From Methanomicrobia archaeon JdFR-19 (GTDB lineage: Archaea > Halobacteriota > Methanosarcinia > DSM-18856 > Methermicoccaceae): 64,000 nt of DNA. Below are positions 34,918 to 60,568 of the stretch, piece by piece. Position 1 is the first letter of the stretch; each line of letters opens with the position of its first letter. Position numbers and translations under genes: made by a program. The stretch spans positions 1 to 64,000 of the forward strand of contig MTMG01000018.1 in assembly GCA_002010075.1 (NCBI GenBank), read 5' to 3'. The notes under the pieces are model-generated. The model was not told the origin of the DNA and did no database searches. It worked only from the letters and a program-made list of their open reading frames with translations.

Positions 34918-34927
34918 ATCATACCTC

Positions 34928-35503
34928 CTATTTCATTGCCAATATCTTCGATTGGGTGTGTTTCCGTGGGAATATTTCTTCCGCCTTATTTCTTAACATT
35001 ATCCTAAGTTCCTCTTCATAATCAGCCTTATGCATTTCCTTACTCTCCCTCTCCTCAATTTCAAAGACCATATCAACTATCCTGTTCAAAGTCTTTCTAC
35101 CATAACCAAGCAACGGCCTTACATACTCTACTCCATGTCTGTCCTCGAGACTTTGAGTCTCGGAAAGAGAGAGCATTGGAACCCTATCATCTCTTCTCGT
35201 ACCATCTGCCACAATAGGAAACATGGTCGCAACTCTTTCAAGTGCCTGTCGATGCAAATGATTTATAGCTCTTCTTGGATTTCCGTCTGCGATACTCATC
35301 TCCACCGCTTCATCTAATATCTCTCTATCCATTTTAATCACTCTGTGGGGCAGTCCTATGACATTGGAAGCTTTCTCAGCCTCTTTCCAACCATCTCCTA
35401 CGCCAAACGTTATCGTTACAAGCTCAACATCAAACATCTATGAAAGCATAAGTGATGCGAGTGCGCTATCTTTACCTCCACTAAACAGTACGCATACAGT
35501 CAT
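34928..35503 (-). CDS. PP-loop superfamily ATPase (in-frame TAG at codon 22)
   Basis: A 191-residue adenylating enzyme of the asparagine-synthase/PP-loop type, regularly found between L39e and PDCD5 genes in archaea; substrate unknown. From ATG 35503 the frame starts [20 protein letters not shown], the ATP pyrophosphatase loop. It crosses TAG (35440-35438) and continues [17 protein letters not shown], the expected second strand. Without readthrough the ATP loop is separated from the rest of the enzyme. The pattern [15 protein letters not shown] lies downstream. Confidence 0.85.
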
Positions 35504-44319: not shown

Positions 44320-45186
44320 GTGCACGAACTGGCATCTCTTTACAAACAATTAAGTCCCATCGACTTCAGGATACTTGTTGGAATAGAGAACGAAATGAGA
44401 AGGCATAAGTGGGTACCTATTGAAAACCTCCAGATATACACAGGAAGCAGTATAGAGCGTTTAAGAAAGCGACTCGAATTTCTCAGAGGCATGAAGATAG
44501 TTCTATACACGAAAACACCATACGAGGGTTATCAACTCTACTACCGGGGATACGACCTCCTGGCTCTGCACACATTTGTAAAGAGAGGGACACTCGATGC
44601 CGTTGGGGGGCAGATTGGGTTTGGAAAAGAGTCCGATGTCTTTGTTGGACTTAAAAATGAAAACAGAGTTGTGATAAAGCTACATAGAGCAGGCATGACA
44701 TTCAAAAAGATAAAGAGAGACAGAAGATACCTTGCGGACAAAGAACACTTTTCTTGGGTGTATGCATCAAGACTTGCAGCACAACATGAATTTAAGGCTC
44801 TCAAGATTCTCTATCCTGAGGTTAGTGTACCAGAGCCAATAGATCAGAATAGGCATGCAATAGTTATGGGATTGTGTGAAGGTGTGACTTTGGTTGACTG
44901 CGTACTCAAAGACCCCGAATTCTTTTTTGATGAGATTATTGAGAATACAAAAAAAACATACGAACTCGGAGTTGTCCATGGAGATCTGAGTGAATACAAC
45001 ATACTGGTTTCCCCAGATGGTATTACCATCATAGACTGGCCCCAATGGGTTGGAAGAGAGGAAATAAATGCAGACGAGCTTCTCCTCCATGATCTTTCGA
45101 TGATATGTAAATATTTTAAAAAGAAGTACTCTATAAAAAAAGACCCTGTTTCTCTTTTGAACTATTTCAAAAGTTAGAGAGGATGA
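44320..45186 (+). CDS. rio2: Rio2 serine/threonine kinase (TAG three codons before TGA)
   Basis: A 285-288-residue atypical kinase used in maturation of the 30S subunit. N-terminal winged helix (LSPIDFRILVGIENEMRRHKWV), P-loop region IGFGKESDVFVG, ATP lysine in RVVIKLHRAG, catalytic VVHGDLSEYNILV and metal-binding IIDWPQW. It starts with GTG overlapping the PHP stop. The frame meets TAG at 45175-45177, followed by AGA GGA TGA. It overlaps the convergent M50 gene by about 20 bases. Confidence 0.92.
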
Positions 45187-59521: not shown

Positions 59522-59659
59522 ATGCCAAAATCCAAGAGAAGAGAACTTGAGAGGAAAGGAGAGAACAAACTCAAAGGACTTGAGAAAAAGCTGATAGAAG
59601 AGAGTTTGGAAGGGATAGATGAAGAATTAGAGGAAATGGAGGAGGAAGAGATAATTTGA
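59522..59659 (+). CDS. Small charged protein, unknown
   Basis: A 45-residue open frame beginning MPKSKRRELERKGENKLKG and turning strongly acidic (LEEMEEEEII) at the C-terminus; helical throughout. No family recognised. It is probably real because its stop overlaps the start of the ThiS/SAMP-like gene (TTGA), and its own sequence supplies that gene's GGAGGAGG ribosome-binding site. Confidence 0.6.
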   Translation: MPKSKRRELERKGENKLKGLEKKLIEESLEGIDEELEEMEEEEII

Positions 59660-59862
59660 AGACAAGGTTGAAAGTGATAATGCCAGATGGTGAGACATTT
59701 GAATTAAAAACAGATGATTTTTCAAGCTATGAGGAGGTTCTTTAGAGTTTAAAGATAAACCCGGAGACCCATCTGATAATCAAAAATGGTAAAGCTGTTC
59801 CCACAGATGCAAAACCTACGAGTGGTGAGTTGAAAATATTGCGGGTTGTTTCTGGAGGTTAA
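59656..59862 (+). CDS. ThiS/MoaD/SAMP-like ubiquitin-fold protein with C-terminal Gly-Gly (in-frame TAG at codon 30)
   Basis: A 68-residue beta-grasp protein: LKVIMPDGETFELKTDDFSSYEEVL, then TAG (59743-59745). It continues SLKINPETHLIIKNGKAVP, ELKILRVVSGG and TAA. The ending in Gly-Gly is the thiocarboxylate/conjugation tail of sulfur carriers and SAMP modifiers. TAG falls in the helix between strands 2 and 3, so the fold is complete only if it is read through. TTG start with GGAGGAGG upstream. Confidence 0.82.
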
Positions 59863-59875
59863 TTCTTTGGTTTCC

Positions 59876-60568
59876 TCATTTTTTTATGAACTCTATTATC
59901 CCCTCTATCATTCTCCTCCCGTCCTCAGACCCTAACAAACTATTGCATGCTCTTTCTGGATGAGGCATGAGTCCCATTACATTCTTACTCTCATTCAGTA
60001 TACCGGCAATGTTCTCTACCGAACCATTTGGATTTGCTGATGCGTTCGGCTCTCCATTCTCATCCACATATCTAAGGGCGATAAGATTTGATGCATTCAA
60101 CCTTTCCAATCCCTCTTTGGTGTGGTAATATCTTCCCTCTTTATGAGCAATAGGTATGCGGATAAGTTCACCCACATCGAATTTGGATGTAAAAGGAGAC
60201 TCGTTCTCCTCAACTCTCAATGTACACCACTTGCATATGAACTTTGGATATTCGTTAATCATTAAAGCGCCCTCGAGGAGGAGTGATTCTGTGAGAACTT
60301 GAAAACCATTACATATTCCCAATATGGGCACGCCATCTTCAGCCATATCCCTCACAACATCCATTACAGGAGTTCTTGCAGCAATAGCACCAGCTCTTAG
60401 ATAATCTCCATACGAAAAACCACCCGGAATCACGACCGCATCACACATTCTCAGACTGCCAACATCCTTGTACCATATTATCTCTGCAGGACACCCCAAC
60501 TACTCAAACACAAATTTGACATCTCTATCACAATTTGTACCCCCAAAACTGATGACGCCCACCCTCAT
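59876..60568 (-). CDS. purQ: FGAM synthase glutaminase subunit PurQ (in-frame TAG at codon 23)
   Basis: The 230-residue glutaminase that supplies ammonia to PurL. From ATG 60568 the frame reads MRVGVISFGGTNCDRDV, crosses TAG at 60502-60500, and continues LGCPAEIIWYKDVGSL, the normal PurQ N-terminus. The nucleophile Cys is in ILGICNGFQVL and the His/Glu in MPHPERA. ATG overlaps the purS stop (ATGA). Beginning after the TAG would remove the first beta strand of the amidotransferase fold. Confidence 0.93.

What the first reader, a model, noticed from the sequence alone, without database searches (positions are those of the whole stretch)
59743..59745. TAG in the ThiS/SAMP-like sulfur carrier
Only readthrough yields the complete beta-grasp fold and the functional Gly-Gly tail. 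If UAG is pyrrolysine, a ubiquitin-like modifier would itself carry a modified lysine at codon 30 in its helix.
Basis: partly seen in the sequence, partly recalled or inferred. Interest (0 to 1): 0.7.

Follow-up and report, generated by a model that had tools for sequence, protein, structure and literature searches.

The report
Pyrrolysine codon in archaeal ubiquitin-like SAMP2
In an archaeon that carries the whole pyrrolysine-decoding kit, the gene for a small ubiquitin-like sulfur carrier (SAMP2) has a TAG codon in its helix that must be read through, most likely as pyrrolysine, at a surface position where relatives carry almost any polar residue; it is probably one of many harmless TAGs in this genome.

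Summary
The TAG at 59743-59745 is real: it is codon 30 of a 68-codon gene (TTG start 59656, TAA 59860-59862). Read through, the product matches Pfam SAMP2 (42.4 bits, cut-off 27) and Haloferax SAMP2 structures, is modelled as a beta-grasp with the TAG residue in the helix, and ends in Gly-Gly. The first 29 residues alone match nothing. The genome holds tRNA-Pyl(CUA), split PylSn+PylSc, PylB, PylC and PylD, and MtmB with TAG at codon 202. TAG is also internal to family matches in FtsY, PurQ, MoaC, UPF0146, DUF7411 and a CinA/FAD-synthase-like protein; PurQ keeps its TAG in the sister species. So the gene is very probably read through, and pyrrolysine is by far the likeliest residue. Nothing suggests the residue matters: 97 relatives have mostly D, E, N or K there, and the measured TAG density gives a 68-codon gene a TAG about 5% of the time. 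Best reading: neutral drift to a pyrrolysine codon in a lineage where TAG is a rare sense codon, here making a Pyl-containing ubiquitin-like protein. Full-length product, the identity of residue 30 and conjugation are not shown.

The parts
59656..59862 (+). samp2 gene, 68 codons, TTG start overlapping the upstream stop (TTGA), TAA stop, product ends in Gly-Gly
   Evidence: Pfam SAMP2 42.4 bits; HvSAMP2 structures; beta-grasp model; alignment of 99 sequences
59743..59745 (+). In-frame TAG, codon 30, near the end of helix 25-31; read as pyrrolysine by inference
59746..59859 (+). C-terminal part made only by readthrough: conserved I34, N35, E37, V48, the last strands and the Gly-Gly; K60 aligns with Lys58 of HvSAMP2
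59522..59659 (+). 45-codon ORF upstream, conserved neighbour of samp2 (71 of 99 loci), overlapping samp2 by TTGA; no known family
   Evidence: no family
59876..60568 (-). purQ with in-frame TAG at codon 23 (60502-60500), kept in the sister species: internal control for TAG as sense

Best explanation
This is the SAMP2 gene of a pyrrolysine-decoding archaeon in the same class as Methanosarcina. Codon 30 has drifted to TAG. Pyl-tRNA(CUA), charged by a two-subunit PylSn+PylSc synthetase, inserts pyrrolysine there, and translation continues to the Gly-Gly tail, giving a working sulfur carrier and modifier that is activated by the one strong UbaA/MoeB-type E1 of the genome. The residue sits on a tolerant polar position of the helix, so it is most likely neutral; one substitution from AAG (Lys) or GAG (Glu) would make it. 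Shown by computation: frame, family, fold, conserved C-terminal half, complete Pyl machinery, many other in-frame TAGs. Inferred: that the residue is Pyl, that readthrough is efficient, that SAMP2 works as in Haloferax, and that the site is neutral.
For: SAMP2 match and fold only with readthrough. tRNA-Pyl CTA, PylSc, PylSn 94.1 bits, PylB 417.6 bits, PylC 335 bits, PylD 222.4 bits. MtmB with TAG at codon 202 and MtbB with one TAG. Seven TAGs of six window genes lie inside family matches: FtsY, UPF0146 (two), PurQ, DUF7411, CinA-like, SAMP2; MoaC elsewhere. Sister species keeps TAG in PurQ, CinA codon 7 and RIO2, and has CAG at CinA codon 209. Variable polar site in relatives. 12 genes with TAG against 13.7 expected by length.
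Against: No proteome or mass data. The NCBIfam SAMP2 equivalog scores 41 bits, under its cut-off of 70. The sister genome lacks this locus, so conservation of this TAG is untested. In M. acetivorans a TAG put into a reporter was read at only 20-30% (PMC2933860). Up to four window genes have a TAG 2-9 codons before another stop, which may be leftover TAG termination.
Confidence: 0.82

Rival explanations
1. Pyl30 is functional: it was selected, for example to shape E1 or target binding through its imine, to block a lysine acceptor site, or to make SAMP2 levels follow pyrrolysine supply and so couple methylamine metabolism to tRNA thiolation.
For: The residue is on the surface of a modifier whose relatives often carry Lys there (17 of 97); Pyl cannot accept a Gly-Gly on its acylated side-chain nitrogen (inference from chemistry).
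Against: D, E and N are commoner at the site than K. TAG numbers per gene fit chance. The precedent, Pyl in tRNA-His guanylyltransferase, was explained by neutral evolution (Heinemann 2009, title cited in PMC2933860).
Confidence: 0.06
2. TAG is a sense codon here but is read at this site as another amino acid, such as Gln, Lys or Trp, by near-cognate or suppressor tRNA.
For: TAG faces CAG (Gln) at CinA codon 209 in the sister species. The whole genome was not scanned for other tRNAs with anticodon CTA.
Against: A complete Pyl set with tRNA-Pyl CTA is present and MtmB has TAG at codon 202. One substitution explains TAG/CAG without shared meaning.
Confidence: 0.06
3. The TAG terminates: samp2 is a recent pseudogene, an assembly error, or a gene switched off except when Pyl is plentiful.
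For: TAG competes with release factor in Pyl archaea (PMC9499178, PMC2933860). A second beta-grasp protein (MoaD/SAMP1-like) exists on contig C8 and might substitute.
Against: The downstream half keeps the frame, the family residues and the Gly-Gly. Housekeeping genes carry the same kind of TAG, and TAGs recur in a separately assembled sister genome, which speaks against sequencing error.
Confidence: 0.06

Closest known systems
SAMP2 of Haloferax volcanii (PDB 4hrs, 2l32, 2lji)
   Same: Beta-grasp, gapless alignment over residues 11-68, Gly-Gly end, a lysine at the place of the chain-forming Lys58
   Different: Codon 30 is TAG; Haloferax has Arg28 there and no such recoding is known to me; conjugation not tested here
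Pyrrolysine in tRNA-His guanylyltransferase of Methanosarcina (Heinemann 2009, cited in PMC2933860)
   Same: Pyl codon in a protein unrelated to methylamine metabolism, explained by neutral evolution
   Different: Other protein; the paper itself is not held, so only its title and my memory were used
Archaea that read all TAG codons as pyrrolysine (Kivenson et al. 2025, from memory, not held)
   Same: TAG inside many housekeeping genes of a Pyl-encoding archaeon
   Different: Whether every TAG is sense here is open: four genes have a TAG just before another stop
Split PylSn+PylSc archaea such as Methanomicrobia archaeon JdFR-19 (PMC9499178)
   Same: PylRS encoded as two genes in a relative of Methanosarcinaceae, as here
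   Different: Whether this genome is JdFR-19 or a relative was not tested

Membership tests
SAMP2 | Match to the Pfam SAMP2 model above its gathering score | tested here: met
   PF21965 42.4 bits, cut-off 27, with Lys at codon 30
SAMP2 | NCBIfam SAMP2 equivalog cut-off | tested here: not met
   NF041919 41 bits, cut-off 70, although full length; so it is a SAMP2-family protein, not a proven functional equivalent
SAMP2 | Beta-grasp fold | tested here: met
   Model pLDDT 86.6; TtuB Z 10.3 over 61 residues at 1.4 A, ubiquitin about 8.7
SAMP2 | C-terminal Gly-Gly | tested here: met
   G67 G68 before TAA; only with readthrough
SAMP2 | E1-type activating enzyme in the genome | tested here: met
   ThiF family 244.2 bits at C1:65029; UbaA model 234.2 bits but under its equivalog cut-off of 450
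SAMP2 | Isopeptide conjugates and sulfur transfer | not testable with these tools
   Needs experiment
Pyrrolysine-encoding archaeon | tRNA-Pyl, PylS, PylB, PylC, PylD | tested here: met
Pyrrolysine-encoding archaeon | Methylamine methyltransferases with in-frame TAG | tested here: met
   MtmB codon 202; MtbB codon 342
All-TAG-as-Pyl genetic code | No gene ends at TAG | tested here: inconclusive
ThiS | Pfam ThiS gathering score | tested here: not met
   18.4 bits, cut-off 22.5

The most novel reading that the evidence does not exclude
A genetically encoded pyrrolysine in a ubiquitin-like modifier has a role: the level or reactivity of SAMP2 follows pyrrolysine supply, tying methylamine metabolism to tRNA thiolation and protein modification.
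Probability: 0.05. Interest if true: 0.85.

Novelty: new member of a known kind. Interest (0 to 1): 0.4.

Why it matters
If Pyl30 is confirmed, this would be a ubiquitin-like protein with a genetically encoded pyrrolysine; a search of the held papers found none that joins these subjects, though that library is partial. It is also a clean natural test of how far TAG drifts into housekeeping genes. The wider point is that a small, order-level lineage with a split PylRS uses TAG inside FtsY, PurQ, MoaC and SAMP2, so pyrrolysine supply would be a general need of the cell and not only of methylamine growth.

Tried and rejected
RNA element after the TAG (PYLIS-like): no unusual folding, z 0.46. Close relatives with the same TAG: the order holds two genomes, and the sister assembly lacks this locus. 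The single-protein scan of genome contigs found nothing; the alignment query gave 80 named loci. ThiS as family name: under its cut-off. A codon-score count of stops lying between two coding stretches gave TAG 4, TAA 3, TGA 2; four of the five TAA/TGA cases are the ends of called genes with a same-frame neighbour, so that count alone is weak and the family matches that span the TAGs carry the argument. FtsY was not found in the sister genome; the 38% match there also holds a TAG. In the structural list, Raf Ras-binding domains score about as high as TtuB, so fold alone shows beta-grasp and not function. A checkpoint note says eight TAGs of seven genes lie inside Pfam matches; on recount it is seven TAGs of six genes, because the histidine kinase TAG lies outside its listed domains.

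Full report
Observation. The TAG at 59743-59745 is in the frame of a short gene at 59656-59862 on the plus strand. The start is most likely the TTG at 59656, which overlaps the stop of a 45-codon ORF (59522-59659) in the sequence TTGA. Under table 11 only 29 residues remain, and these match nothing in Pfam. Read through, with lysine as a stand-in, the 68-residue product matches SAMP2 (PF21965) at 42.4 bits against a cut-off of 27, and ThiS only below its cut-off.

Family and fold. From residue 11 to the end the protein aligns without gaps to Haloferax SAMP2 in the PDB (4hrs, 2l32; E 2-3e-5). In that alignment the TAG codon corresponds to Arg28 of 2l32. Lys60 corresponds to Lys58, the residue that links SAMP2 chains in Haloferax (PMC4048286). 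An AlphaFold model from 39 sequences has mean pLDDT 86.6, strands 4-8, 14-18, 39-43 and 57-63, and a helix 25-31. It is a beta-grasp: TtuB Z 10.3 over 61 residues at 1.4 A, ubiquitin about Z 8.7 (Foldseek). Only the read-through product has the last two strands and the Gly-Gly.

Relatives. Eighteen usable loci from the same class and 80 named loci of Methanosarcinaceae, Methanothrix, Archaeoglobi and others were aligned with the window gene, 99 sequences in all, some of them the same species twice. At the TAG column 97 relatives are readable: D 28, E 18, N 17, K 17 and a few A, R, S, M, V, L and Q. No relative has a stop there, and 21 of them end samp2 with TAG, so they use TAG as an ordinary stop. 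I34, N35 and the final glycine, all after the TAG, are invariant. The site is a tolerant polar position between the conserved L29 and L32. Lys (AAG) or Glu (GAG) would reach TAG by one substitution (inference).

Neighbour gene. A similar 45-residue ORF lies on the same strand directly before samp2 in 71 of 99 loci, this one included. It has no Pfam or NCBIfam family. This shared gene pair supports orthology and an intact gene here.

Decoding. The same genome has tRNA-Pyl with anticodon CTA next to pylSn and pylSc, pylB and pylC side by side, pylD on another contig, and MtmB with TAG at codon 202. A split PylRS in a close relative of Methanosarcinaceae is described for JdFR-19 (PMC9499178). No tool named this genome, and its identity with JdFR-19 was not tested.

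TAG elsewhere. A simple coding-potential caller found 67 genes in the window, of which 12 hold 16 in-frame TAGs. Seven TAGs of six genes lie inside family matches: FtsY, PurQ, UPF0146 (two), DUF7411, the CinA-like gene and SAMP2. A histidine kinase has one before its recognised domains. MoaC and the dimethylamine methyltransferase MtbB on other contigs also have TAG inside the family match. The sister species, at about 95% DNA identity, keeps the TAG in PurQ, in CinA codon 7 and near the end of RIO2, and has CAG for CinA codon 209. TAG density is 0.8 per 1000 codons, against 18 per 1000 from base composition, so it is a rare sense codon. Genes with a TAG number 12 against 13.7 expected from gene lengths, and a 68-codon gene has about a 5% chance of one. 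SAMP2 looks like one draw among many.

Mechanism and doubt. Best reading: Pyl is inserted at codon 30 and the protein works as an ordinary SAMP2, activated by the UbaA/MoeB-like E1 on contig C1. Frame, family, fold and machinery are shown by computation. The identity of residue 30, the efficiency of readthrough and the function are inferred. In M. acetivorans a TAG placed in a reporter was read at 20-30% (PMC2933860), so some truncated product is likely unless termination at TAG is weak here. Four genes with a TAG 2-9 codons before another stop may be remnants of TAG termination.

Known or new. Pyl by neutral evolution outside methylamine enzymes has a precedent in tRNA-His guanylyltransferase (cited in PMC2933860), and archaea that read all TAG as Pyl have been reported (Kivenson et al. 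2025, from memory; not held). This case is a new member of that kind, striking mainly because the protein is ubiquitin-like.

Noticed in passing
59522-59659 (+): Small charged protein (MPKSKRRELERKG...) of no known family, conserved directly before samp2 in 71 of 99 archaeal loci: a candidate partner of SAMP2.
   Followed up: partly
34930 (-), 38503 (+), 45175 (+): Three genes show TAG, exactly two codons, then TGA, with a purine-rich AGGAGG/GAGGGG-like stretch between; possibly old TAG stops with a backup stop, or short Pyl tails. The one at 45175 is kept in the sister species.
   Followed up: partly
34919-35503 (-): DUF7411/PRK14561 PP-loop protein with weak likeness to the tRNA sulfurtransferase TtuA also carries an in-frame TAG at codon 22.
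   Followed up: no
L028:1501-2841 region and L029:1501-2823 region (contigs C14 and C9 of the same genome): Two MtmB-family proteins without a TAG, with Met or Phe at the place of the pyrrolysine of MtmB; they may use another substrate.
   Followed up: partly
L002:1000-2226: tRNA-Pyl, pylSn and pylSc lie together but far from pylBC, and pylD is on a third place: a dispersed Pyl cassette with split PylRS in a Methanosarcina-class archaeon.
   Followed up: partly
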